Assembly: GCF_020621385.1 (NCBI RefSeq)
Contig: NZ_JAESVA010000012.1
Span: 62,001 to 126,000 of the forward strand
From: Acidisoma cellulosilyticum
Lineage (GTDB): Bacteria > Pseudomonadota > Alphaproteobacteria > Acetobacterales > Acetobacteraceae
DNA: 64,000 bases
Direction: 5' to 3'
Positions 1,607 to 23,747 of this stretch are shown here, piece by piece. Every line of letters begins with the position of its first letter. Position 1 is the stretch's first letter. The translations under genes were made by a program, and so were the position numbers. The notes below the pieces were generated by a model, which worked only from the letters and a program-made list of their open reading frames with translations, did no database searches and was not told the origin of the DNA.

Positions 1607-2722
1607 TTACTCTCCGCCATCCGCGCGGAGCTTCGCCCAGTCTTGCGAACTCAGAAGCTGGGCGATGCTCTGGTTCAGCGCCGGCAATAACGGGCTTCGC
1701 TTCACGACCATGAAGGCATGCGGATGGCTGCCGAAGCTGTCGCCGACGATCTCCAGATCGGCATGGGTGTTCAATACCCGCCGCAGCGGCAATTCGTCGG
1801 ACACGACGCCTGACACCTGGCCATGCTCCAAGGCCGTGACGCTCTCGTCGACGGAGCGATAGGTGCGCAGGTTGATGAGGTTCTGCTGCAGCCAGGTCTT
1901 GGCGTAGGAGTCCCGGACGGTCGCCACCAGGCGGGATTCGACATCGCCGATACTGGTGATGGGGGCTGTCGCGCGGAACGAGGCCGCAAGGCTGGTTGTC
2001 AGAACGGCAGTGATCTCCGCCGTGAAGACCGTGCCGCCCAGCATCAGAAGCATCGCGACATAGCGTCCGCGCTCGGAACTCGGCAGCTTGCTGCCGCAAT
2101 TATGGGCGACGAGCGTTTGCGCGGCCCACCAGGCATTATGCCGAAACTCGCGCGGGAACATGTCCGGATCGCGGCGCCGTTCGATCAGGCGGATGACATA
2201 TCCGCCGATCAGGACGGCAACCAGGCCCACAAGGATGAGCAACAGCATCTCGCTGCTGACGAACAGATGCGTCATGCTCTGGATGGTCTCCAGCCGCCTT
2301 GACCAGACACCTTCCTTTTTCACCAGCAGATCAAGCGGCACGATTTGGTTGGCATCGCTGAAATCAACGACGAGGGCCAGTTCGGGCGTCGGCGTTATGC
2401 CGCCGATCCCGATATCGGCCTGATGGCTGATGATCGCATTCGTCAGGTCGTTCAGCGTTCGCTGCGGAAGATATTCGACCGCCCAGCCGTTTTTCGCCGC
2501 GATGGCATTGAAGACCGCGATGCTGATGCCGTGCGGCCCGTTCCGACCCGGTGAGGCATAAGGCGGATTGTCCAAGGTAGCGACGCGAACGACCAGGGGT
2601 TTGGCCGTGCCGCTGCGCGCACTGTCAGGCTCGGCGGCGCCCGCGCTGGCTTGGCCCATGGCCCAAAGCAGCATGCAAAGGGCCAGCAGCCAAGGCAGTG
2701 TCGCGAACCGACGAGATGTCAC
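1607..2722 (-). CDS. Prokaryotic ionotropic glutamate receptor-like protein (periplasmic ligand-binding domain plus ion channel)
   Basis: A 371-aa protein with a signal peptide (hydrophobic LPWLLALCMLLWAMGQASAGA). A split SBP_bac_3-type ligand domain starts VVRVATLDNPPYAS and includes ADIGIGGITPTPELALVVDFS. It is interrupted by a channel module: TM1 (MLLLILVGLVAVLIGGYVIRL), a pore-loop region, and TM2 containing GRYVAMLLMLGGTVFTAEIT, which aligns with the SYTANLAAF helix of glutamate receptors. The second ligand lobe follows (SRLVATVRDSYAKTWL, ALEHGQVSGVVSDELPL). The GTG start at 2722 has GGAAG upstream. An ATG at 2788 is possible but would put a long polar stretch before the signal peptide. 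The pore lacks the TVGYGD filter of GluR0. Ligand and ion are unknown. Confidence 0.75.
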   Translation of the reverse strand: MTSRRFATLPWLLALCMLLWAMGQASAGAAEPDSARSGTAKPLVVRVATLDNPPYASPGRNGPHGISIAVFNAIAAKNGWAVEYLPQRTLNDLTNAIISHQADIGIGGITPTPELALVVDFSDANQIVPLDLLVKKEGVWSRRLETIQSMTHLFVSSEMLLLILVGLVAVLIGGYVIRLIERRRDPDMFPREFRHNAWWAAQTLVAHNCGSKLPSSERGRYVAMLLMLGGTVFTAEITAVLTTSLAASFRATAPITSIGDVESRLVATVRDSYAKTWLQQNLINLRTYRSVDESVTALEHGQVSGVVSDELPLRRVLNTHADLEIVGDSFGSHPHAFMVVKRSPLLPALNQSIAQLLSSQDWAKLRADGGE

Positions 2723-2813
2723 GGCAGGGCTTCCGGCGACAGGATGTTGACGAGGCAGTGTTACCTTGACGCTATCGCAGCGCAACATCCCACTGATCGA
2801 GAGAAGAATCGAT

Positions 2814-2854
2814 GACGGAGCCAGTTGCGAGACGGAGCCAGTTGGGAGACGGGG
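2814..2854. repeat. 17-bp tandem repeat upstream of the receptor gene
   Basis: GACGGAGCCAGTTGCGA is followed immediately by GACGGAGCCAGTTGGGA and then a partial third unit, GACGGGG. It lies between the stop of the aminotransferase gene at 2877 and the start of the channel gene on the same strand. Confidence 0.7.
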
Positions 2855-2876
2855 CCGCGCGGACGCCGGCCGTCGG

Positions 2877-4079
2877 TCAGCGCAGGTCTTCGCAGAAGCG
2901 GATGATGCGGTTGCAGGCCTCTTCCAGCGAGGCATCATCGGTCGCGTAGCTGATGCGGACATGCGGGCTCATGCCGAAGGCAGCGCCATGGACCAGCGCC
3001 ACATGCTGCTCTTCCAGCAGCGCCACGGCGAAGTCGCGATCTGTTTCGATCGGACGGCCGCCGGCCGTGGTGCGCCCGATACAGCCGGCGATGGAGGGGA
3101 ACACGTAGAAGGCGCCTTCGGGCACGGCGCAGGTCATGCCGGGGGCACGGCGCAGCATGGCGACCACCATGTCGCGGCGGCGATGATAGGCCGCGACCAT
3201 CTCGGCCACCATCGCCTGCGGCGCGTCCAGCACGGCGGCGGCGGCGGCTTGTCCCACGGTCGAGATGCCGGCCGTCGCATGGCTTTGCACCACTGTCATG
3301 GCGCGGATCAGCGCTGCCGGACCGCCCGAGAAACCGATGCGCCAGCCGGTCATGGCATAGGTCTTGGACACGCCCGACATCACCAGGGTGCGGTCGCGGA
3401 GTTGAGGGGCGACCGCCGCGATGCTGATCGACCCGAGGCCGTCATACCGCAGATGTTCGTAGATTTCGTCGGAGAAGATCCAGACATGCGGATGCCGTTC
3501 CAGGACCGCCGCCAGGTCCTGCAACTGCTCGGCCGAATAGGCGGCGCCGGTCGGGTTGTTCGGCGCGTTCAGCACCACCCATTTCGTGCGCGGGGTGATG
3601 GCCGCGTCCAGATCCTCGGGCCGCAGCCGGAAGCCGTTATTCTCCGGGCAGGAGACGGGTACCGCGACGCCGCCGAGGAATTGCGCGGTCAAGGCATAGC
3701 TCGACCAATAGGGCGAAGGGATGACGATCTCATCACCCTCATCCAAGGTCGCGGCGAAGGCATTGAAGATCGCCTGCTTGCCGCCGTTGGAGACCATGAT
3801 CTCGTTCAAGGCGAAATCGATCTTCTGGTCGCGGGCGAATTTCCGTTGAATGGCCGTCTTCAGGACGGGCAATCCGTCGACAGGCGGATATTTGGTGAGC
3901 CCGTCGCGCGCGGATTTGGCGGCCGCTGCGATCGCGACCTCGGGCGTCGCGAAATCCGGCTCGCCGATCGCGAGCGAAATGACGTTGTGACCGGCCGCAC
4001 GCATTTCCCGCGCGCGGGTGGACATCACGACGGCAGCGGCGGTCTCGGCGCGGCCGAGCCTTTGCGACAAAGCGGGCAT
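2877..4079 (-). CDS. Pyridoxal-phosphate aspartate/aromatic-type aminotransferase (paralogue 1)
   Basis: A 400-aa fold-type I, class Ib aminotransferase. Visible landmarks are VISLAIGEPDFATPE, the cofactor and substrate region [22 protein letters not shown] with the Asp that pairs with the pyridine nitrogen, the Schiff-base lysine in [16 protein letters not shown] and the C-terminal Arg of HVRISYAT. It should transfer amino groups between aspartate (or an aromatic amino acid) and 2-oxoglutarate. ATG 4079 is chosen because it begins the domain, with GGTGAGAAC upstream. A very similar paralogue of identical length lies just upstream on the same strand. They are separated by a palindromic repeat, so this is an old tandem duplication. 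Confidence 0.9.
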   Translation of the reverse strand: MPALSQRLGRAETAAAVVMSTRAREMRAAGHNVISLAIGEPDFATPEVAIAAAAKSARDGLTKYPPVDGLPVLKTAIQRKFARDQKIDFALNEIMVSNGGKQAIFNAFAATLDEGDEIVIPSPYWSSYALTAQFLGGVAVPVSCPENNGFRLRPEDLDAAITPRTKWVVLNAPNNPTGAAYSAEQLQDLAAVLERHPHVWIFSDEIYEHLRYDGLGSISIAAVAPQLRDRTLVMSGVSKTYAMTGWRIGFSGGPAALIRAMTVVQSHATAGISTVGQAAAAAVLDAPQAMVAEMVAAYHRRRDMVVAMLRRAPGMTCAVPEGAFYVFPSIAGCIGRTTAGGRPIETDRDFAVALLEEQHVALVHGAAFGMSPHVRISYATDDASLEEACNRIIRFCEDLR

Positions 4080-4100
4080 CGAACAGTTCTCACCAAACAG

Positions 4101-4206
4101 TAGTCGCCCGCGCACTTGATGCGCGGGTCTACCCTTGGCGGAGCCCAAACGCCGTCGAGGCGCCGGGGCGGGTAGACCCGCCGGTCAAGCCGGCGGGCGA
4201 CGATTT
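4101..4206. repeat. Palindromic repeat between the two aminotransferase genes
   Basis: GTCGCCCG at the left and CGGGCGAC at the right form inverted ends. Inside are GCGCACTTGATGCGCGGGTCTACC and GGGTAGACCCGCCGGTCAAGC type segments, shared with the other repeats in this window. The block separates two co-oriented paralogues. Confidence 0.7.
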
Positions 4207-4215
4207 AACGCAGTC

Positions 4216-5421
<1,206 letters not shown>

Positions 5422-8549: not shown

Positions 8550-9221
8550 ATGATGTCGCAAGGTGAAAAGCCTGCCGGGGCGCCAGACGCACCCGTGAAG
8601 CCTCCCGTCGTGGTTAAGAAATACGCGAATAGACGACTCTATAATACCGAGAGTTCCAGTTATATCACGCTCGACAACCTTGCCATGATGGTCAGGGAAG
8701 GGCGTGATTTCATCGTCTACGATGCGAAGTCGGGCGAGGATATCACGCGTAGCGTTCTGACGCAGATCATCGTGGAAGAGGAAAGCAAGGGCAGTGCCTT
8801 GCTGCCCACGGCTTTCCTGCGCAATCTCATCGGCTTCTACGGCGACAGCATGCAAGGTGTGCTGCCGCGATATCTTGAGCAGTCGATGGCCAATTTCACC
8901 CAGCAGCAGCAGCAGGTCCGCGCGGCCATGCAGCAGACGGTGGGTACTCTCTTTCCCTTCGATCTGGAGCAGGTCAGCCGCCAGAACATCGCGATGATGG
9001 AACGCGCGATGACCATGTTCACGCCGTTCTACCGCGAGCCCGAGGCGACGTCCGAGCCTTCGGCCGAAGCGCAGCCCAAGCACCCGAATGTCGAGCATGA
9101 GCTGACCTTGCTGCGCGGCGAGCTGGCTCGTTTGCAAAAGGAATTGGGTGAAACCCGGGCGCAGCTTGCGGATCAACCTGTGGCCAAGACCAAGCTCGAC
9201 GGACGAACGGCCGCCGATTGA
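8550..9221 (+). CDS. phaR: PHA synthesis repressor PhaR
   Basis: A 223-aa regulator. The N-terminal PHB_acc_N domain is unmistakable: VVVKKYANRRLYNTESSSYI and then LDNLAMMVREGRDFIVYDA. The PHB_acc segment follows (FLRNLIGFYGDSMQGVLPRYLEQSM), then a Gln-rich helix and a C-terminal leucine-heptad coiled coil (VEHELTLLRGELARLQKELG). PhaR binds PHA granules and represses phasin and PHA genes until polymer titrates it. It is divergent from the phaE-like/phaC genes, so 8413-8549 is the likely shared control region. GGAG precedes ATG 8550, and a second in-frame ATG at 8553 is also possible. Confidence 0.93.
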   Translation: MMSQGEKPAGAPDAPVKPPVVVKKYANRRLYNTESSSYITLDNLAMMVREGRDFIVYDAKSGEDITRSVLTQIIVEEESKGSALLPTAFLRNLIGFYGDSMQGVLPRYLEQSMANFTQQQQQVRAAMQQTVGTLFPFDLEQVSRQNIAMMERAMTMFTPFYREPEATSEPSAEAQPKHPNVEHELTLLRGELARLQKELGETRAQLADQPVAKTKLDGRTAAD

Positions 9222-9270
9222 CGAGATTGGTGACCGGGCTGGCGCCAGGATCTGGTGACGGATCGAATTG

Positions 9271-9306
9271 AAAAAGGGGCGGCCCATGCAGGCCGCCCCT
9301 TTTTTT
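9271..9306. terminator. Bidirectional intrinsic terminator (phaR / TPR gene)
   Basis: The stem AGGGGCGGCC/GGCCGCCCCT with loop CATGCA is flanked by five A on the left and seven T on the right. It therefore ends both phaR (plus strand) and the convergent TPR gene (minus strand). Confidence 0.93.
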
Positions 9307-9325
9307 GTCTCCGCGAAGGCCGCGA

Positions 9326-11785
9326 TCAGGCCGCCGTCTGCGCCAATGCCCGCAAATAATCCGCGCGCCGCAGGAAGGTGGCATTCTCCGGCGCAAGCTT
9401 GAGAGCCTGTTCCACGGATAGAAGGGCATTCGCCGTGTCGCCACTGGCCTGCAGGACATTGGCGAGCTGGTAGTGATTCAGCGAATCGGCCGAATTGGCC
9501 GCGACCGCACGGCGCGCGAATTCCAGCGCCTGCCCGGTTTCGCCCCGGCGCAGCGCAATATCGCTCAGCCGTCGCAGCGCGCCGGCATCGGCGGGCGCGA
9601 GATCCACGGCGGTCTGGCCAGCGGTCATGGCTGCCGGCAGGTTGCCGGCATTGAGGTGAAGATTGGCAAGATGGCCATGGGCCGAGGCTTCCCCCGGCGC
9701 TTCCTCGGTCGCCTTGATCGCCCAGGTGAGAGCCGCGCCAATGTCTTGTCGGCGCATCGCGATATCGCTCAGACGCTGCAAGGGTAGGACCACCTGAGCG
9801 GGCGTCGCGGCAATGGCATGCGCCTGCAGGAACGCAGCCTCCGCCTCGTCCAGCCGGTTGGCCTGGAGGTGAAGCGTGCCGATCTGCTGAAAGCCGGCAG
9901 GATCCGCGGGGAAATCCTGAACCATGCGCTGGCCCCAATACAAGGCCCCCGCCTCGTCGCCACGCCGGTTGAGACTATGGCTCAGCCGGCTATGGAAGGC
10001 CGGGTTATCACCCGCGACGGCGGTTGCCTGCGTGAGAGCCCCTTCCGCCGCAGCGTGATCGCCACGCGTGAATTCCAGCGACGCCAATTGGTTGAAGCTG
10101 GCGGGGTCGTTCGGATCCGTTTCGATGGCGAGGTGCAACCATGTCGCAGCCTCGGCTTCGTCACCCCGCCGCAGCGCCACATCGGCCAGCCGGCGCAGAA
10201 GCGGCACATTCGTCGGCGCAACTTCCAGGGCGCGGTTCAACGCCACTTCCGCCGCGGCCGGATCACCTTGCCGCAAATGCAAGCCGGCAAGGTGGTTGTA
10301 GCCTGCGAGATCGCCCGGCTGCGCGGCGATCGCCTGCTCAGACAAGGCGAAGGCCTCGCCCGGTTTCCCGATGCGCATTTTAAGATCGCTGAGCCGCTGC
10401 AGAAGGGCGATGTCGGACGGCGCCAGTTCGATCGCACGGGCGAGCGATGCCTCGGCACCCTCGGCCTGATTCCGACGCATCAGAAGCATCGCCTGATGGG
10501 TGTGGTTCGCCACATCGGTCGGATGGACCACAATGGCCCTGGCAGCCCAGTCCATCGCTTCGCCTTGCTCGCCGGCGCGCCAGGCGAGATCGCTCAGCCG
10601 CCGCAGATGGATGGGATTGCCGGGGGCGAGTTGGGCAGCGCGGTCCGCGGCCTGACGGGCTTCGGCCAGCTTCTCCTGCTGCAGATAAAGACCGGCGATA
10701 TAGGCATGGTTGTCGGCATCGAAGCGATTGGCGGCGACGGCGCGTTCCGCCCAGGCCAGTGCATCGGCCTGAGCCGTTTTCTGCTGCGCCATCTGGCTCA
10801 GCCGGCGCATCAGAAAGGCGGCATCGCTCGGCTTGCCGGCTTGCGCTACTGCCGCTTCCAGCGTGGCATAGGCGTCGTCATGCCTACCTTGCGAGCCGCG
10901 GATCTGCGCCAGATGATTATGGTTCATAAGGTCTGCGGGATGATCGGCGATGGCGCGCTCGGCCCAGGCAAAGGCGCCGTCCCAGTCGCCGCGTCGCATC
11001 AAAGTATCGCTGAGGCGACGCTTATGGTGGGCTACCGCCGAATCCAGCGAAACGGCCAGGAGCAGCGCGGCTTCCGCGGCCGTATGATCGCCGGCGGAGG
11101 CAGCCAGACGGGCTTCGAGATCGTAGTTGGCCGGGCCATCGGGCTCGGTCTCGCGCGCGCGCCGTGCCCAGACAAGGGCGGTGTCGAGATCGCCACGGGT
11201 GGCTTGGAATTCGGCCATGCGCCGCAGCGCTGGGGCATTCTCCGCCGCCGCATCGATCGCGGTCAGGATAGAGGCTTCCGCCCCGTCGAAATCCCCGTAG
11301 CGTTGCTGCAGGTTGGCCAGGAAAAGATGGCCCTGAGCCTCCTGCGGCCGTAGCTGTGCCGCGCGCTCCGCCAGGGCGAGCGCGTCGTCGCGGCGGCCGA
11401 GATGAACCATGATATCCGCCAGCCGGCGCAGATATCCGGTATTGTCAGGCTTGATCTCGACGGCACGGACAAGAAGCTCGGCCGCGTCGGCATAGCGTCC
11501 GTCGCGGATGCAGAGCTGACCGAGATGGGCGTAACTCTCGGGGTCCGCAGGGTCTGCCGTCACGGCCTGTTCCGCCCATTGCCGCGCTTCCTCGGGCTTG
11601 CCTTCCTCCCAGCGCATGTCGCTGAGGCGACGCAGAAGCCCCGGATGCTCCGGATTGAAATCCAAAGCCCAGCTCAGTAGTTGCTCAGCTGTCGCGAAAT
11701 CGCCGTTGCGGATCAGTTCGGCAGTCACCCGCAGCGTCATGCCGGGATTGGTCGGGTCGACGCTTGGGCCGGTGTAATCGCTCAT
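9326..11785 (-). CDS. Large tetratricopeptide (TPR) repeat protein built of 68-residue double modules
   Basis: An 819-aa protein that is almost entirely TPR. The repeat is unusual in being a two-TPR module of 68 residues. One TPR starts LRRLSD(I/L) and the next starts with a HLAxLHLxxG-type helix, each followed by AExxLxxAxxLAP. I count twelve LRRLSD-like positions across the protein, so roughly eleven to twelve modules. No signal peptide, membrane segment or catalytic domain is visible, so a cytoplasmic scaffold is likely. It lies 73 bases downstream of the GHKL ATPase gene on the same strand, so the two may be co-transcribed. ATG 11785 has only a weak Shine-Dalgarno. The partner protein is unknown. 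Confidence 0.85.
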   Translation of the reverse strand: MSDYTGPSVDPTNPGMTLRVTAELIRNGDFATAEQLLSWALDFNPEHPGLLRRLSDMRWEEGKPEEARQWAEQAVTADPADPESYAHLGQLCIRDGRYADAAELLVRAVEIKPDNTGYLRRLADIMVHLGRRDDALALAERAAQLRPQEAQGHLFLANLQQRYGDFDGAEASILTAIDAAAENAPALRRMAEFQATRGDLDTALVWARRARETEPDGPANYDLEARLAASAGDHTAAEAALLLAVSLDSAVAHHKRRLSDTLMRRGDWDGAFAWAERAIADHPADLMNHNHLAQIRGSQGRHDDAYATLEAAVAQAGKPSDAAFLMRRLSQMAQQKTAQADALAWAERAVAANRFDADNHAYIAGLYLQQEKLAEARQAADRAAQLAPGNPIHLRRLSDLAWRAGEQGEAMDWAARAIVVHPTDVANHTHQAMLLMRRNQAEGAEASLARAIELAPSDIALLQRLSDLKMRIGKPGEAFALSEQAIAAQPGDLAGYNHLAGLHLRQGDPAAAEVALNRALEVAPTNVPLLRRLADVALRRGDEAEAATWLHLAIETDPNDPASFNQLASLEFTRGDHAAAEGALTQATAVAGDNPAFHSRLSHSLNRRGDEAGALYWGQRMVQDFPADPAGFQQIGTLHLQANRLDEAEAAFLQAHAIAATPAQVVLPLQRLSDIAMRRQDIGAALTWAIKATEEAPGEASAHGHLANLHLNAGNLPAAMTAGQTAVDLAPADAGALRRLSDIALRRGETGQALEFARRAVAANSADSLNHYQLANVLQASGDTANALLSVEQALKLAPENATFLRRADYLRALAQTAA

Positions 11786-11858
11786 CGGTCAATCAGTTCC
11801 ATGGTCTGGATCGGGTGGGCGTTGTCGATCATCCTATGACGAAAGACGGTCCGGCGCA

Positions 11859-13628
11859 TCAGGCCGCGGCTGAGTGTGGCATAGCATTGGGAATTTCGGC
11901 TGCCACGCGATCCTGGAATCTTGTCCGCGCCATTTCCAGGGCGCCCGCCCAATCATCCGCGACGAGGCTGAGACTCTCTGTGGACTGACTGCGCGAAACC
12001 TCCTCCGGCCGCCATCCCAGACCTTTCTTGGACATGCTGTAGACGACGGCGCGGGTGATGCGTTTGGTCAGGGCCCATTCGGCCGTCTCGGTCGCGATAC
12101 GGCGGCCTTCCTCTTCCTGCGGGCTGGCCTGCAGCATGCTTTCCGAGAGCAGGGTCGCGGCCATGTCCGTGACCGCAGGGTAGGACAGGTTGATGAAAAT
12201 CTGGTGCGACTGGGGATAAAATTTCGCGGCCCGCCCTTCCAAGGCCCGTTCCTTGATCTGCTCGGGCGTTCGCAAGCCGATGATCTCGGGCGGGCGCTCG
12301 AAGCTCGGCGGTGCCGGGGGTTTGGGTGGCGCCGGCGGCGGCTTGGGCTTGTCGTCCGCGACCGGCGGCAGCGGGGCCGGCGGCTTGGCGGCTTCGGGCG
12401 GCTTGGGCGGAACGGGCGCACCCGGCACCGGCGCCTGCGGCGTCAGCGGCACCTTCAGGTCGGCCAGCAGGGCCTTCAGCTCGTCGCTGATATCGTCCAG
12501 GTAATTGGCTTGGCCGGGACCGAAACTGCGGATGATCTCGGCAAGCCAGGCCGGCATATAGCTCCGCACCAGCGCGCTGAAATCGGCAATATGGACCTGG
12601 CGCTGGTCGTTGCCGCGGAAGCGCAGAAACTGGCGATAGGCTTCCGGCCAGACCAGATAGTCATGCGGCAGTTCGACGAAGACCGAGACGTATTTGGCGC
12701 CGAAAGGCACGCCGAAATTCGGCGCATCCTGCAGCCAGCCATCGCCCGCGCGGACGTCGTACATCTCGTCGCGGAAGACGACGGCGCCGCGCGAGGAACT
12801 GGTTGCGATCGCGCCCTTGGCCGATTGCGTGCTCTCGCCCTCCGGCGGATCATAGAAATAATGAATCTTCACGCCGCTCGGCGTGGTGCGGGTTTCGGTA
12901 CGGCCGAATTCGCCCTGCCGGTCGTCGAGCCCGACCATCGCGCGCGGTGCGGCCCCGCCCCAGATCGCCGGCATCAGGGTCAGACTGACGTCATGCGGCA
13001 GGCGGAAGAAGCGGTTTTCCAGATAGGCGCCCATCCAGTCCGGCGCGGACTTCAGCGACGGGCCGTAGGGTGACGCGACCGTATCCTGATCGGCACTATT
13101 GCCGCCGAGCAGAACCTCGGTCCAATCGATCGACAGGTCATAGTCGCCCTCGGCGAGACAGGCCTGCGTCGCATCGATGACCTCGGCCCGGTCGGGACCC
13201 ACCCGCAGGCGTCCGTAGGTGCCGTCGCGGTAGCCCATCACAACTTCGCTGACCCGGCCGTCGACGCAGGAGCGGTAACGCAACCCGTGCCGGTTCGACG
13301 GCAGCGAGGCGACCTTCGCGCCCATCCCGAAATTCTGGTCCAGGCTGTTCTGCTTGCGCAGCGAGGAGGCGAGATCCGTGATCTGCAGCAGCTCCGCGGC
13401 ATTGAGGCCGGGACCCGTGTTCCAGATGCGGAGCTTGCGGGCGCCTTCATGCTGTCTGGGACCGATGACGACCTGACGCTGGCCGGGCGCCGCGCCGGCG
13501 GCGGCTTCCAGCCCGTTCACCACCAACTCCCGGATCATCATGGTCTTGGGGCAGCGCTCGATCATGCTGGAGACAAGGAAGGCTTCGTTAGCCACCTTGA
13601 GGGGCGCGATCATGGAACTGTCGGACAT
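11859..13628 (-). CDS. GHKL-fold ATPase with proline-rich linker, function unknown
   Basis: A 589-aa protein. The N-terminal Bergerat-fold ATPase shows the N box IRELVVNGLEA (Glu34, Asn38), the G1 box IWNTGPGL (residues 68-75, with Asn70 where Asp is usual) and the G2 box NFGMGAK (99-105). The arrangement resembles HSP90/MutL/MORC ATPases more than histidine kinases, and no kinase dimerisation domain is seen. A middle domain follows, then a Pro/Lys/Ala-rich tract at about 400-445. After it comes a conserved-looking helical end (FYPQSHQIFINLSYPAVTDM). ATG 13628 has CGGAGTGAG upstream. The TPR gene is next on the strand. I do not recognise a named family. Confidence 0.78.
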   Translation of the reverse strand: MSDSSMIAPLKVANEAFLVSSMIERCPKTMMIRELVVNGLEAAAGAAPGQRQVVIGPRQHEGARKLRIWNTGPGLNAAELLQITDLASSLRKQNSLDQNFGMGAKVASLPSNRHGLRYRSCVDGRVSEVVMGYRDGTYGRLRVGPDRAEVIDATQACLAEGDYDLSIDWTEVLLGGNSADQDTVASPYGPSLKSAPDWMGAYLENRFFRLPHDVSLTLMPAIWGGAAPRAMVGLDDRQGEFGRTETRTTPSGVKIHYFYDPPEGESTQSAKGAIATSSSRGAVVFRDEMYDVRAGDGWLQDAPNFGVPFGAKYVSVFVELPHDYLVWPEAYRQFLRFRGNDQRQVHIADFSALVRSYMPAWLAEIIRSFGPGQANYLDDISDELKALLADLKVPLTPQAPVPGAPVPPKPPEAAKPPAPLPPVADDKPKPPPAPPKPPAPPSFERPPEIIGLRTPEQIKERALEGRAAKFYPQSHQIFINLSYPAVTDMAATLLSESMLQASPQEEEGRRIATETAEWALTKRITRAVVYSMSKKGLGWRPEEVSRSQSTESLSLVADDWAGALEMARTRFQDRVAAEIPNAMPHSAAA

Positions 13629-13833
13629 TCTCACTCCGGGTCTGTCGATAGGAGTAATCCTAACGAAAGGTTAGCATCTGCCGCAAACTAACGTTTTGCG
13701 GCGCAACATTTACTTAATTTGAAGTAAGGCGGACGCTTGTTGAGGCGCAACCGTAAAACGCGCGACACGATCGGTTGTCTTGCCGGCTGGTCTCGCCAAA
13801 TCACTATGTCCGGTCTGAAAAGGGAAGCACGCC
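13629..13833. promoter_or_regulatory. Divergent control region dense in inverted repeats (GHKL gene / SDR gene)
   Basis: Three inverted repeats lie in about 70 bases. They are CTAAC-GAAAG-GTTAG (13660-13674), CCGCAAA-N7-TTTGCGG (13681-13701) and TTACTT-N6-AAGTAA (13710-13727). CTAACG occurs in both of the first two. The stretch is more AT-rich than its surroundings. These look like operator or leader structures for one or both divergent genes, but no matching regulator is known. Confidence 0.5.
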
Positions 13834-14547
13834 ATGGCTTCGTCTCAACCCGTCGTCCTCATCACCGGCGGCGCCCGTGGCATAGGGCGCGGCATCGCTG
13901 AACGTCTGGTAGGCGATGGATGGCGCGCTGTCATCGCCGATCGACAGAAACCGGTCGGTCTTTTGCCTTTGCCGCATCGCTTCGTTGAGGGTGATGTGTC
14001 CGACGAGGCGGACGTGGCGGGGCTGGTGGCAGGCATCGCGACCGGGGAAGGGCGGCTGGACGCCCTGATCTGCAATGCCGGTTTTATGATCCGCAAACCG
14101 CTGGAGGCGCTGAGCCTGGCGGAATGGCAATCGGTCCTCGGCACCAACCTTACCAGCACCTTCCTGCTGGCCCGTGCGGCGGCGCCGTTGCTGCGACAGG
14201 CCAAGGGCGCCATCGTCACCATCGCGTCCACCCGCGCGCATCAATCCGAGCCCAATACCGAAAGCTACGCGGCGTCCAAGGGCGGCATCCTGGCGCTGAC
14301 CCATGCTTTGGCGGTCAGCCTGGGGCCCGACATCAGGGTCAATGCCGTCAGCCCGGGCTGGATCGACACGCATGGCGGCGCGCTGTCAGAGGAAGACCAC
14401 GCCCAGCACCCTGCCGGCCGCGTGGGACGCGTGGAGGATATCGCGAGCCTGGTCGCCTGGCTGGTGGGGCCGGACAGCGGTTTCGTCACCGGCTCCGAAT
14501 TCGTCGTCGACGGCGGCATGACGCGGAAGATGATTTACGCGGAATAG
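13834..14547 (+). CDS. Short-chain dehydrogenase/reductase
   Basis: A 237-aa classical SDR. The Rossmann motif is [17 protein letters not shown], followed by the NAG motif (LICNAGFM), catalytic Ser in [14 protein letters not shown] as the YxxxK pair and the PG motif in VSPGWIDT. It oxidises or reduces an alcohol or carbonyl with NAD(P). The substrate is not deducible, and it may be a 3-oxoacyl-ACP reductase-like enzyme. GGGAAG precedes ATG 13834. It is convergent with the TlpA gene, whose stop is 17 bases downstream. Confidence 0.88.
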
Positions 14548-20531: not shown

Positions 20532-20720
20532 TCGTGCTGGTCGCGTTTATGTCGCGGGATCGAAATAATTTTACGGTTCAGTCATGACCGAATGCGCGCC
20601 GCTTACGAGCCGCGTGCAAAATAACCCTGGCTAAATACAAGAATGTAACGTTCGCGACCACGGGCAGTCATGCCATCCTGCGGCGCTGTCGCTGCGCCAT
20701 CATGTCGGGACCCAATAAGA

Positions 20721-23700
20721 ATGAGCGGGACAACGCTGGACGTGACCCTGACGGGGAGCTTGCAGGCGGAGCTGGATCAATCCGGCGTCTATGCCTATGC
20801 GGTTCTTTTCGACAGCAACGGCTTCGTGTCGGAGACGACGCTCGTCAATGACGGGGCGATTTCCAGCGACGGCAGTTACGACATTACCCTGACCGACGGT
20901 TCCGACACGCTCGATGGCGGCAAACTCTATGTCGTGGTGCAAAGCGTCGACCCCGGCACGCCGTCGACCCTCGCCACCGATATCGAGAGCCAGGCCTATA
21001 TCAACCCGACGAATGCGGCGGCCGATGATTTCGGATATGATAGTTTCGAGGTCACGCTGCTCGACAACGGGTCGGACGCGGGTAACCTGACTTCGGTCAA
21101 CGGCTTCGGCCTGCCGATGGCGGTGTCGGACGTCAACGGCAGCGTCGGCTATGGGGTCAGCGGCGACACCATCGCCGCCGACATCGGCAGCATCAGCAGC
21201 GATGCGGTATCGACCTATAGCGAGGGCGCGCTTGCGGGTGATTTCCGCATGTCGACCTCACCCACGGAATCCAATCAGGCGGATACGCCAGCCGATGTCG
21301 GGGCCTTTCCGCAGACCGCCTGGAACGCCTATATCGCGGCGCTGGAAAATACGGCGACCGCGTCGGACATCCTGATCTCCGGTCAGTTCAATGGTGCGCC
21401 GGATGCGCAAGGCGTCTGGCATAATGGCGGCTATTATGCCTATCAGCTGCAATGGGACGCGGCCGAAAAGATTTTCTGGCTGGTGCCGCTCGCGGATAGC
21501 CAGATCCAAGGCTATATCGCGCTGACGCCGGCGGAGATTGCGCAGAACGCCTATTCGCAGATCGGCTCGGTCAGCATCTATAGCAGCGACAGTCTTGATT
21601 CGACGCTCATCACCACCATGCTGGTCGGCGCGAACAATCAATGGGGCGCGGTTCTGGCCCAGTTCCTGACCGGTTTCACGGGCGGGTATTACGGCGAAGT
21701 CGGGACACCGCAGAACCCGCAGATTGCGACGCCGATCGACCTGAACCAGAACGACAATTGGCTGCCCGACTATGCGTTCGGCAATCACGGAACTTCGACG
21801 CTGGATCTGCCCGCCGGCACGCAGGTCTATGACCCTTATTCCCAGATATTCTTCGACAATTCGAATTCCTACGGCTCGCCCTATTCCGATGCCTTGATGA
21901 GCCAATACACGACAGGCGGCCCGCTGCTATCGATGGAAGATCCGAATGGCGGTGATGTATCAACTATAGATTTGACGGTCTATGCGGATGGCGAGACGCC
22001 GGGGGGCTATACGCCGCCGACGAGCGATACCTATATCGCGCCGCCCGCCGGCGGCTATGCGGTGCCCACCGAGCAGGTCCCCGGCAATAGTCTTCTTCTC
22101 AATTTCTATTCGGCGGTTGCCGATAACCAGGGTGTCGAACTCGACCCCGATGCGACCATCGTCCTCAGCATTCTGACCAGCGATACCGGCGACGTTCCGC
22201 AATGGACGACGGTGACTTTCGACGGCGCCAGTAGCGGTGGCCTGTTCCAGAGCTGGACGCTGACGCCTGACGGCAGTGGCGGCTATAGCGCGAGCGCCGG
22301 TGGGTCGAGCGGCGCGCCGGGCTATATGGTGATCGCGGGCCTGCCGACGGCGGCCAGCGGTGTCTCCTGGTATCAGCTGACGGTCGCGGGCGCGGACGGG
22401 AGCGACGGCAAGACGTTCAATCTTTATGCGACGACGGGCAGTTCCGGCCAGATCGAGAACCTGGACTATGCCGGGCAGAGCGGGGCGGTGGTGGTGGACG
22501 GCCTGGCCTCCGTCTCGCCCACCGGGCAGACCACGCAATATGTCAATAATATCAAGCTGAATTTCTCGACCGGCAGCACGGTCGCCTTCAATCCCAATCT
22601 GGCGGTGCCCGTCACGGGAACGATGAACAATCTGCCGACGCCGGCAGCACCCGTGGTCGGCACGCTGTCGGATGGCAGCCTGACGGCGCTGGCCGGTCAG
22701 ACCGCGGAAGCCACGAATACCATCACCACGACCAGCGATGCCTTCGGCTTCGGCTGGACCGGCTATAACCCGGCCGCCGCGACCATCACCGATGGCGCCG
22801 GCGGCCCCGTTACCGGCTATGGCTGGACGGGAACGGCACCGGTCAGCGGCTCCATCACCGGCAGCGGCGTGATAACCGGCTGGGTCAATGCTTATACCAA
22901 CAAGACCAATGGCGATGACACGGCATTGCTGACGGTGATGAACGGCGGGTCGGTCGTCGGCACCATCACGGCATTGGCGGACGCCGACGGCGACTGGCTG
23001 ACGGGACAGGCCGATTTCGGCAATGGCACCTATACGGTCACCATGGCCGATACGCTCGACGTGGGTGGCGCGCTGACACCGGTGTCAGCGCAAAGCGGTG
23101 ATCTGGTCCTGACCGTCGACGCGGCGGATAATCCAACCGCCGACAATAGCCTGGTCGTCGCCTGTTTCGCCGCCGGCACGCGCCTTGCGACGCCCGCCGG
23201 GCTGATCGCGGTCGAGGATCTGCGGCCGGGCATTCTTGTCGTCACGGCCGATGATCGTGTCGAGAGCGTGCAATGGATCGGTCATCGTGACGTCGATTGC
23301 GCGCGCCATCCCAATCCGCGTGCCGTCTGGCCGGTGCGCATTTTGGCCGGGGCATTCGGGGCCGGGATGCCGGTGCGTGATCTGTATCTGTCGCCCGATC
23401 ACGCGATCTTCGCCGAGGGCGCGCTGATCCCCGTGAAGCATCTCATCGACGGCCACAGCATCGCGCAGATGCCGGTTGAGACCGTTACCTATTTCCATGT
23501 CGAGTTGACCGGTCATGACGTGCTGCTGGCGGAAGGTCTGCCGGTGGAAAGCTATCTGGACAAGGGCGATCGCAGCTCTTTCGCCAATACGGTGGGCGCC
23601 GTGAGGCTGCATCCGGCCTGGGGGGCCGACGCGCGGGACCTCACGCTATTTCAGGACGCCGCCGGCTATGCGCCGCTGGTCGTGACGGGACCGGTGGTGG

Positions 23701-23747
23701 AGCGTCTTCGCGCCCGTTTGGCGGCGGGCGCTCAAGTGGCGGCCTGA
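20721..23747 (+). CDS. Large secreted or surface Hint-domain protein with glucanase-like N-terminal half
   Basis: A 1008-aa protein rich in Gly, Ser, Thr, Asp and Tyr, with few charged basic residues. The C-terminal Hint_2 domain begins at Cys815 (CFAAGTRLATPAG, IAVEDLRPGILVVTAD) and continues with LYLSPDHAIF and LIPVKHLIDG, the pattern of Hint proteins in Acetobacteraceae and Rhodobacteraceae. The N-terminal half (VNGFGLPMAV, IFFDNSNSYGSPYSDAL) recalls GH64/thaumatin-like glucanase folds, an inference from short motifs. No Sec signal is seen. The start ATG 20721 follows GGGACCCAATAAG. Hint domains self-process or attach proteins. Here no downstream extein is left after the Hint domain. Confidence 0.75.
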   Translation: MSGTTLDVTLTGSLQAELDQSGVYAYAVLFDSNGFVSETTLVNDGAISSDGSYDITLTDGSDTLDGGKLYVVVQSVDPGTPSTLATDIESQAYINPTNAAADDFGYDSFEVTLLDNGSDAGNLTSVNGFGLPMAVSDVNGSVGYGVSGDTIAADIGSISSDAVSTYSEGALAGDFRMSTSPTESNQADTPADVGAFPQTAWNAYIAALENTATASDILISGQFNGAPDAQGVWHNGGYYAYQLQWDAAEKIFWLVPLADSQIQGYIALTPAEIAQNAYSQIGSVSIYSSDSLDSTLITTMLVGANNQWGAVLAQFLTGFTGGYYGEVGTPQNPQIATPIDLNQNDNWLPDYAFGNHGTSTLDLPAGTQVYDPYSQIFFDNSNSYGSPYSDALMSQYTTGGPLLSMEDPNGGDVSTIDLTVYADGETPGGYTPPTSDTYIAPPAGGYAVPTEQVPGNSLLLNFYSAVADNQGVELDPDATIVLSILTSDTGDVPQWTTVTFDGASSGGLFQSWTLTPDGSGGYSASAGGSSGAPGYMVIAGLPTAASGVSWYQLTVAGADGSDGKTFNLYATTGSSGQIENLDYAGQSGAVVVDGLASVSPTGQTTQYVNNIKLNFSTGSTVAFNPNLAVPVTGTMNNLPTPAAPVVGTLSDGSLTALAGQTAEATNTITTTSDAFGFGWTGYNPAAATITDGAGGPVTGYGWTGTAPVSGSITGSGVITGWVNAYTNKTNGDDTALLTVMNGGSVVGTITALADADGDWLTGQADFGNGTYTVTMADTLDVGGALTPVSAQSGDLVLTVDAADNPTADNSLVVACFAAGTRLATPAGLIAVEDLRPGILVVTADDRVESVQWIGHRDVDCARHPNPRAVWPVRILAGAFGAGMPVRDLYLSPDHAIFAEGALIPVKHLIDGHSIAQMPVETVTYFHVELTGHDVLLAEGLPVESYLDKGDRSSFANTVGAVRLHPAWGADARDLTLFQDAAGYAPLVVTGPVVERLRARLAAGAQVAA

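What the first reader, a model, noticed from the sequence alone, without database searches (positions are those of the whole stretch)
9326..13628. GHKL ATPase plus giant TPR protein as a possible undescribed system
The ATPase has full N, G1 and G2 boxes but Asn replaces the adenine-contacting Asp (NTGPG). It has a proline-rich linker and an unknown C-terminal domain. Next on the same strand, 73 bases on, is a scaffold protein. HSP90/MORC-like ATPases with repeat partners occur in stress and defence machines. Its upstream region is packed with inverted repeats. The combination does not match a system I can name.
Basis: inference. Interest (0 to 1): 0.65.

Follow-up and report, generated by a model that had tools for sequence, protein, structure and literature searches.

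The report
Hsp90-like ATPase with dedicated TPR partner
Two neighbouring genes in an acetic-acid-bacteria relative encode a rare Hsp90/MORC-like clamp ATPase with an altered nucleotide pocket and its own long repeat-protein partner, a pair that is also found fused into one protein in related bacteria and whose function, perhaps defence, is untested.

Summary
An ATPase gene (11859-13628, minus, 589 aa) is followed after 73 bases by an 819-aa TPR gene (9326-11785). The ATPase is GHL-type: GHKL plus S5-like domain (residues 11-372; best structural matches Hsp90, SMCHD1, MORC2), a Pro-rich linker and a confidently modelled C-terminal domain without a solved relative found. It reaches no Pfam or NCBIfam cut-off and no PADLOC model. 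The pair is a unit: in one clade of 14 ATPases, 8 have the TPR gene directly downstream, 5 have it fused, one lacks it; in 150 family genomes, 6 of 7 with this TPR type also have the ATPase (13 have it). The Asn is a fixed trait, joined by Trp in place of the Gly of the Gly-Thr motif (43 of 43), with catalytic residues invariant; four outgroup proteins keep Asp and Gly. The family is rare and scattered. Some basal members lie on plasmids or prophage-like DNA or beside Gabija, RhuM, reverse-transcriptase or DndB-domain genes, but enrichment over random loci is not significant, and the window copy sits among housekeeping genes. Most likely a nucleotide-gated clamp with a TPR capture arm; defence is the leading, unproven role.

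The parts
11859..13628 (-). GHL-type ATPase gene, 589 aa (P0001)
   Evidence: Pfam HATPase_c E 0.00098, below cut-off; structure
12513..13598 (-). residues 11-372: GHKL domain plus S5-like transducer
   Evidence: AF2 model pLDDT 83.3; Hsp90 Z 16.9, 289 aligned, rmsd 5.1; SMCHD1 Z 16.5; MORC2 Z 16.0
13419..13421 (-). codon of Asn70, at the place of the adenine-contacting Asp of the G1 box
13122..13124 (-). codon of Trp169, in place of the Gly of the Gly-Thr motif
   Evidence: 43 of 43 core rows
12309..12455 (-). proline-rich linker, about residues 392-440
   Evidence: pLDDT under 50 at 411-426; 23 Pro of 49
11862..12308 (-). residues 441-589: C-terminal alpha/beta domain with long helices, no solved relative found
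   Evidence: AF2 pLDDT 93.3; 0 PDB matches at E <= 0.001, best Z 4.5
11786..11858 (-). 73-bp spacer between the two genes
9326..11785 (-). TPR superhelix gene, 819 aa (P0002); 68-residue two-TPR supra-repeat, N-terminal DPTNP motif
13649..13727 (.). four short inverted repeats upstream of the ATPase, in the divergent spacer to the SDR gene; not seen in the five relatives compared

Best explanation
The two genes encode one machine. The ATPase is a GHL clamp of the Hsp90/MORC architecture: the GHKL head binds a nucleotide, the S5-like domain senses it, and the C-terminal domain probably holds a dimer together, so that nucleotide binding closes the clamp. The TPR protein is a long superhelix, fixed to the clamp's C-terminal end as in the natural fusions, that captures a protein or polymer target and presents it to the clamp. 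The base pocket has been rebuilt (Asn for Asp, Trp for Gly) without losing the catalytic residues, so the protein probably still binds a nucleotide, with altered strength or base preference. The most likely role is defence against phages or other mobile DNA, as accessory cargo of mobile elements that in this clade has settled in the chromosome. Shown by computation: linkage, fusions, predicted fold, conserved residues, scattered distribution. Inferred: dimer clamp, target capture, nucleotide change, defence role.
For: Adjacent in 8 and fused in 5 of the 14 ATPases of one clade (support 100/100). Fused and separate TPRs share one 68-residue register. 6 of 7 genomes with the TPR type have the ATPase, baseline 13 of 150 (hypergeometric 8e-7, and 8e-5 without the own genus, kinship ignored). 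A second copy on contig C25 keeps the TPR gene and a remnant of the ATPase end. The predicted fold is GHL. E34, N38, G72, G74, G101, G103, K105 and R332 are invariant in 43 of 43 rows with the Asn/Trp pair. Scattered: 13 of 150 in the family (one weak hit dropped). Basal members: Gabija downstream on Agrobacterium and Dinoroseobacter plasmids, in the latter with one gene between; RhuM directly upstream in L017; a DRT reverse transcriptase near L073; a DndB-domain gene directly upstream in three rhizobia and one IMG/VR contig (Pfam-tested in L024 and L079; L023 and L025 by blastp cluster); terminase, relaxase and T4SS genes near L072, L074, L066.
Against: Defence: the ATPase matches no PADLOC model at E <= 1. 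Strong PADLOC hits around 13 basal loci (at least 4 of 106 ORFs, ABC-type matches set aside, 25 of 59 models shown) do not significantly exceed random loci (1 of 99; Fisher p 0.37). The derived set shows only mad3/mad8 matches, read as ABC transporters. In the window and in same-genus G053 the pair lies between an SDR gene and phaR, a housekeeping stretch. No match in the phage records at E <= 1e-5 and one IMG/VR contig found. Part of the mobile-element list comes from plasmid and viral collections searched on purpose. Clamp: the model is a monomer; dimerisation was not tested.
Confidence: 0.43

Rival explanations
1. A bacterial Hsp90-type chaperone with a dedicated TPR co-chaperone that folds or assembles particular client proteins, in stress or cell-surface biology rather than defence.
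For: Closest sequence and structure matches are Hsp90-family N-terminal domains (TRAP1 E 2e-4 with the wide profile A3; 0.26 with A1; Z 16.9). The window copy has housekeeping neighbours; several Roseomonas-type members do too, and some lie next to glycosyltransferase-like genes (L013, L015, L069, read by eye).
Against: Rare and scattered distribution fits an accessory trait better. The C-terminal domain shows no match to a solved Hsp90 domain, though a missing match is weak evidence.
Confidence: 0.28
2. A pseudo-NTPase scaffold: Asn/Trp abolish nucleotide binding, and the head serves only as a protein-binding platform for the TPR partner.
For: The equivalent Asp-to-Asn change is used as the nucleotide-binding-defective mutant of Hsp90 (PMC10148809, passages read); VanS kinases with this Asn bind ATP weakly (PMC10017428, passages read).
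Against: Catalytic Glu, Mg-binding Asn, both G1 glycines, the G2 residues and the S5-domain Arg are invariant in 43 of 43 rows, which a dead pocket would not require (roles of these residues are from general GHKL knowledge). The VanS paper reports an Asn-adenine hydrogen bond in ThkA and cites a GTP-using kinase with the same change.
Confidence: 0.18
3. Two independent genes that share an operon by chance in a few related bacteria.
For: Outside the clade the fetched stretches around ATPase relatives hold no such TPR except L064; in G102 the TPR hit is far from the ATPase; G105 has a TPR hit without the ATPase.
Against: Five natural fusions, eight adjacent same-strand pairs with 10-114 bp spacing, and genome-level co-occurrence.
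Confidence: 0.04

Closest known systems
Hsp90 family (TRAP1, Grp94, HtpG) with TPR co-chaperones
   Same: GHKL plus S5-like architecture, N-box region aligned with TRAP1, a TPR partner
   Different: Asn and Trp in the base pocket, a C-terminal domain without a match to Hsp90 found, TPR partner encoded next door or fused, patchy distribution
MORC and paraMORC ATPases (Iyer et al. 2008, PMC2292703; abstract, passages and section 6 read)
   Same: GHKL plus S5 plus own C-terminal extension, scattered by lateral transfer; some of our relatives lie near restriction or defence genes
   Different: No helicase, methylase or nuclease gene seen next to the window pair; the term TPR does not occur in that paper's text
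VcSduA, a Shedu protein with a GHKL head (PMC12137116, passages read)
   Same: GHKL head modelled as a dimer with a clamp-like middle domain and a C-terminal working domain; shown to protect against phage
   Different: Its C-terminal domain is a nuclease; ours is a small domain without known fold, followed by TPRs
VanS and other histidine kinases with Asn in the G1 box (PMC10017428, passages read)
   Same: Asp-to-Asn at the adenine contact
   Different: Histidine kinases, not GHL proteins; the Trp change was not described in the passages read

Membership tests
GHKL/GHL ATPases | N-box Glu and Asn, G1 glycines, G2 GxG | tested here: met
   invariant in 43 of 43 core rows
GHKL/GHL ATPases | Asp of the G1 box (DxGxG) | tested here: not met
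   Asn in 43 of 43 core rows; Asp in 4 outgroup rows. Described as a GHL-like family with a changed pocket
GHKL/GHL ATPases | S5-like transducer after the GHKL domain | tested here: met
   predicted model only: residues 11-372 align to Hsp90, SMCHD1, MORC2 and MutL at Z 14.7-16.9
Hsp90 | Hsp90 C-terminal dimerisation domain | tested here: inconclusive
   no PDB match at E <= 0.001 for the C-terminal domain, best Z 4.5
Hsp90 | ATP-driven chaperone activity | not testable with these tools
   biochemistry needed
paraMORC of restriction-type operons | neighbouring helicase, methylase or endonuclease | tested here: not met
   window neighbours read as SDR, argH, phaR, phaC-like and thiolase genes (names by eye); 89 neighbours of 13 derived loci gave only mad3/mad8 PADLOC matches at E <= 1e-15
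paraMORC1-5 | sequence membership in one of the five families | not tested
   no profiles of these families were available
Histidine kinases | DHp/HisKA domain with phospho-acceptor His | tested here: not met
   no such Pfam match for P0001 at E <= 1
Known anti-phage systems of PADLOC-DB 2.0.0 | model match of the ATPase | tested here: not met
   0 families at E <= 1

The most novel reading that the evidence does not exclude
A GHL clamp whose base pocket was rebuilt (Asp to Asn plus Gly to Trp) to answer to a nucleotide other than ATP, for example GTP or an infection-related nucleotide, and that on sensing it closes on targets held by a TPR arm: a new kind of nucleotide-sensing defence machine carried by plasmids and prophages and domesticated in the chromosomes of acetic-acid-bacteria relatives.
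Probability: 0.13. Interest if true: 0.82.

Novelty: new variant of a known kind. Interest (0 to 1): 0.55.

Why it matters
GHL clamps drive chaperones, topoisomerases, mismatch repair and MORC silencing, typically through an Asp that reads adenine. A family in which that residue is Asn in every member seen, paired with a Trp in the neighbouring Gly-Thr motif, while the rest of the catalytic site is kept, offers a natural test of whether the Hsp90-type engine can run on another nucleotide. The natural ATPase-TPR fusions make the clamp-plus-TPR arrangement, transient in eukaryotic Hsp90 complexes, available as one polypeptide for structural work.

Tried and rejected
Phage origin: no match in 50,697 phage records at E <= 1e-5 for P0001 or for the Caballeronia relative; one IMG/VR contig; two more viral scans, with the Caballeronia and Dinoroseobacter proteins, found no relative. 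Solved relatives by sequence: P0001 alone gave three weak hits, starting at residues 376-394 and covering the Pro-rich linker (E 0.015-0.42); profiles gave weak Hsp90 hits. C-terminal domain fold: no significant match, which does not show a new fold.

Conserved upstream operator: the inverted repeats were not seen upstream in L059, L004, L043, L009 or L060 (compared by eye). One promoter-like match in 9200-14000, inside the ATPase gene, against 0.6 expected.

Empty-site comparison in same-genus G130: phaR and the phaC-like gene were found together, but the SDR gene was not in the fetched stretch, so no clean empty site could be shown.

Diversifying selection on the TPR: the C25 copy differs with dN/dS 0.23 overall, highest in one 68-residue stretch 0.61, so purifying selection dominates. 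Between the window and G053 the TPR is the least conserved gene of the stretch (44%, ATPase 66%, eight other genes 59-91%; a ninth query was out of frame and dropped).

Neighbour test: 13 basal loci (106 ORFs), 13 random loci (99 ORFs), 13 derived loci (89 of 92 ORFs, three TPR partners dropped); gene calls by a rough codon-composition script that missed known genes such as Gabija in L045. By ORF 4 of 106 against 1 of 99, p 0.37; by locus 4 or 5 of 13 against 1 of 13, p 0.32 or 0.16 (L045 counted). mad3/mad8 matches were set aside: in the basal set their carrier is L024 997-2841, read as an ABC transporter ATPase by eye; for the derived set the same reading is assumed from the shared sequence cluster. 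The member behind Aga_Nuclease was not identified.

Rows dropped: L059, L062, L068 as duplicates of L005, L016, L019; L019 (ATPase in two ORFs) left out of the tree; L075 lacks the N-terminal part; loci L040, L052, L053, L058 had no full match; G119 (18.9 bits) dropped from 14 to 13 positives. For L077 and L085 the Gly-Thr motif was read by eye because MAFFT misaligned it.

Full report
What is there. The ATPase gene occupies window 11859-13628 on the minus strand (589 aa) and the TPR gene 9326-11785 on the same strand (819 aa), with a 73-bp spacer. The window is G000:C12:62001-126000 of a 6.0-Mb genome. The closest named relatives of the ATPase are Acidocella aminolytica (79%) and, among plasmid records, Acidisoma sp. 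PAMC 29798 (65% over the whole length); the host is probably Acidisoma or a relative in the Acetobacteraceae, an inference. The pair lies between a divergently read SDR gene and a phaR gene (names by eye).

The ATPase. Pfam gives only a sub-threshold HATPase_c match (E 0.00098); NCBIfam gives nothing above cut-off; PHROGs and PADLOC give no match. An AlphaFold2 model from 24 relatives is good (pLDDT 83.3, pTM 0.80). Residues 11-372 match the GHKL plus S5 module of Hsp90 (Z 16.9, rmsd 5.1, 289 aligned), SMCHD1 (16.5), MORC2 (16.0), topoisomerase VI (14.8) and MutL (14.7); Foldseek ranks MORC3 first at E 6e-9. The C-terminal 149 residues fold confidently alone (pLDDT 93.3) but find no solved structure at E <= 0.001 and no Z above 4.5.

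The pocket. A profile of the family aligns its W-N-T-G box to the D-T-G box of TRAP1 and Grp94, so Asn70 stands where the adenine-reading Asp stands. One search tabulated 48 rows: 43 have Asn together with Trp-Thr-Glu at positions 169-171; four outgroup rows (L047, L076, L077, L085) have Asp with an ordinary Gly-Thr (two of these read by eye); one (L075) lacks the region. Glu34, Asn38, the G1 and G2 glycines, Lys105 and Arg332 are invariant in the 43. Because the change is shared by descent it counts as about one event; its conservation afterwards is the evidence that it matters. The equivalent Asp-to-Asn in Hsp90 is used as a nucleotide-binding-defective mutant (PMC10148809, passages read). 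In histidine kinases the same change occurs naturally: VanS has it and binds ATP weakly, GTP was not preferred there, and the paper cites another kinase with the change that was reported to use GTP (PMC10017428, passages read). So Asn alone has a precedent in kinases. I found no description of the Asn/Trp pair in a GHL protein in the searches, which cover open-licence full texts only and none of which named the Trp.

The pair is a unit. One genome scan returned 24 loci; whole-genome and plasmid searches gave more. In a tree of 46 ATPases, 8 with a TPR gene directly downstream and 5 with the TPRs fused in the same ORF fall in one clade of 14 rows (100/100); only Gluconacetobacter (L006) in it has no such TPR in the fetched stretch. 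Spacing in the 8 adjacent pairs is 10-114 bp, and all 8 TPR proteins begin near a DPT-N/K/R-P motif. Adjacent and fused TPRs share a 68-residue two-TPR supra-repeat with Arg-Arg at positions 2-3 (88 and 94% in 80 adjacent units; 96 and 61% in 42 fused units). Outside the clade one more locus (L064) has this TPR type, convergent and 730 bp beyond the ATPase end; the other ATPase loci outside the clade show none in the stretches held. With a profile of eight units of the window protein, 7 of 150 family genomes have a match at E <= 1e-11: six of them have the ATPase, one (G105) does not. In G102 the two hits are far apart, and G016 has a second TPR of this type elsewhere. The two calls appear to draw the same 150 genomes by their handles; unlisted ones could not be compared. 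Ignoring kinship the chance is 8e-7, and 8e-5 without the own genus.

A decayed second copy. Contig C25 of the same genome carries another TPR gene (2198-4651, 817 aa, 91% DNA identity, dN/dS 0.23). Its similarity to the window ends inside the spacer, next to a transposase-like ORF; a 75-bp remnant of the ATPase end lies 5 kb away among further transposase-like ORFs (ORFs read by eye). Insertion elements probably broke up a second pair.

Distribution and surroundings. 14 of 150 family genomes match (13 after dropping an 18.9-bit hit); 6 of 398 in a phylum sample and 7 of 385 in a class sample, own genome and weak hits included; 3 of 299 in a phylum sample with the wider profile. Same-genus G053 has the pair at the same place; same-genus G130 lacks it. 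On a plasmid of Acidisoma sp. PAMC 29798 the pair sits near IS transposases. More basal relatives: on Agrobacterium and Dinoroseobacter plasmids a short ORF precedes the ATPase and Gabija follows, in Dinoroseobacter with one gene between (GajA E 3e-220 and GajB 1e-178 for Dinoroseobacter). A RhuM gene is directly upstream in Rhodopseudomonas (L017). A DRT reverse transcriptase (RT_UG13a, E 4e-225) lies about 600 bp upstream on the other strand in G410 (L073). A DndB-domain gene is directly upstream in Rhizobium, Mesorhizobium, Bradyrhizobium and one IMG/VR contig that also has a PIN_8 gene (Pfam-tested in L024 and L079, the others by blastp cluster). Terminase, relaxase/ArdC and T4SS genes accompany L072, L074 and L066. 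Part of this list is biased because plasmid and viral collections were searched on purpose. Against random loci, strong PADLOC matches, ABC-type matches set aside, were seen in at least 4 of 106 basal neighbours, in 1 of 99 control neighbours and in none of 89 neighbours of derived loci; the difference is not significant (p 0.37 against random). Several Roseomonas-type members lie among housekeeping genes or near glycosyltransferase-like genes (by eye).

Mechanism. Best reading: a nucleotide-gated GHL clamp with a TPR capture arm, an accessory trait that came with mobile DNA; the leading role is defence (0.43 for the whole statement, lowered slightly from 0.45 after the neighbour test was computed as not significant). 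The chaperone reading and the dead-pocket reading stay open. DefensePredictor (PMC13092281, passages read) lists TPR and HATPase among the abbreviations of a figure legend on predicted systems; the figures were not visible, so I cannot exclude that a similar pair is among its predictions.

Verdict. Real, conserved and undescribed as far as the searches reach; a new variant of a known kind (GHL ATPase), not a new kind. The most testable surprise is the rebuilt base pocket.

Noticed in passing
G000:C25:2198-4651 and 9690-9764 (L078): Second, apparently IS-broken copy of the pair: intact TPR gene, 75-bp remnant of the ATPase end, AT-rich flanks.
   Followed up: yes
L044 7800-9875 and 9931-13072; L045 7748-9854 and 11345-14489: Short ORF (65-76 aa, weak DUF4145) plus ATPase upstream of Gabija genes on plasmids of Agrobacterium and Dinoroseobacter.
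   Followed up: partly
L023-L025 upstream of the ATPase; L079 1761-5116: DndB-domain protein paired with the ATPase in three rhizobia and a viral-collection contig with a PIN_8 gene: possibly a second two-gene system of the same ATPase family.
   Followed up: partly
L012, L044, L066, L072, L073, L074 upstream of the ATPase (cluster c2); similar-sized ORFs also in L045, L046: Conserved short ORF of about 75-107 aa with a GNLSN motif directly upstream of basal ATPases.
   Followed up: partly
L060 3631-7902: TPR partner of 1423 aa with about 15 near-identical 68-residue repeats in tandem: recent repeat expansion, or an assembly effect.
   Followed up: no
G016:C8:13939-15972: A second protein of the same TPR type in a genome with a single ATPase match.
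   Followed up: no
window 20670-23747: Large protein with a C-terminal stretch that looks like a Hint domain (recalled motif, not tested).
   Followed up: no
window 2877-4148 and 4216-5418: Two related aminotransferase-like genes in tandem (by eye).
   Followed up: no
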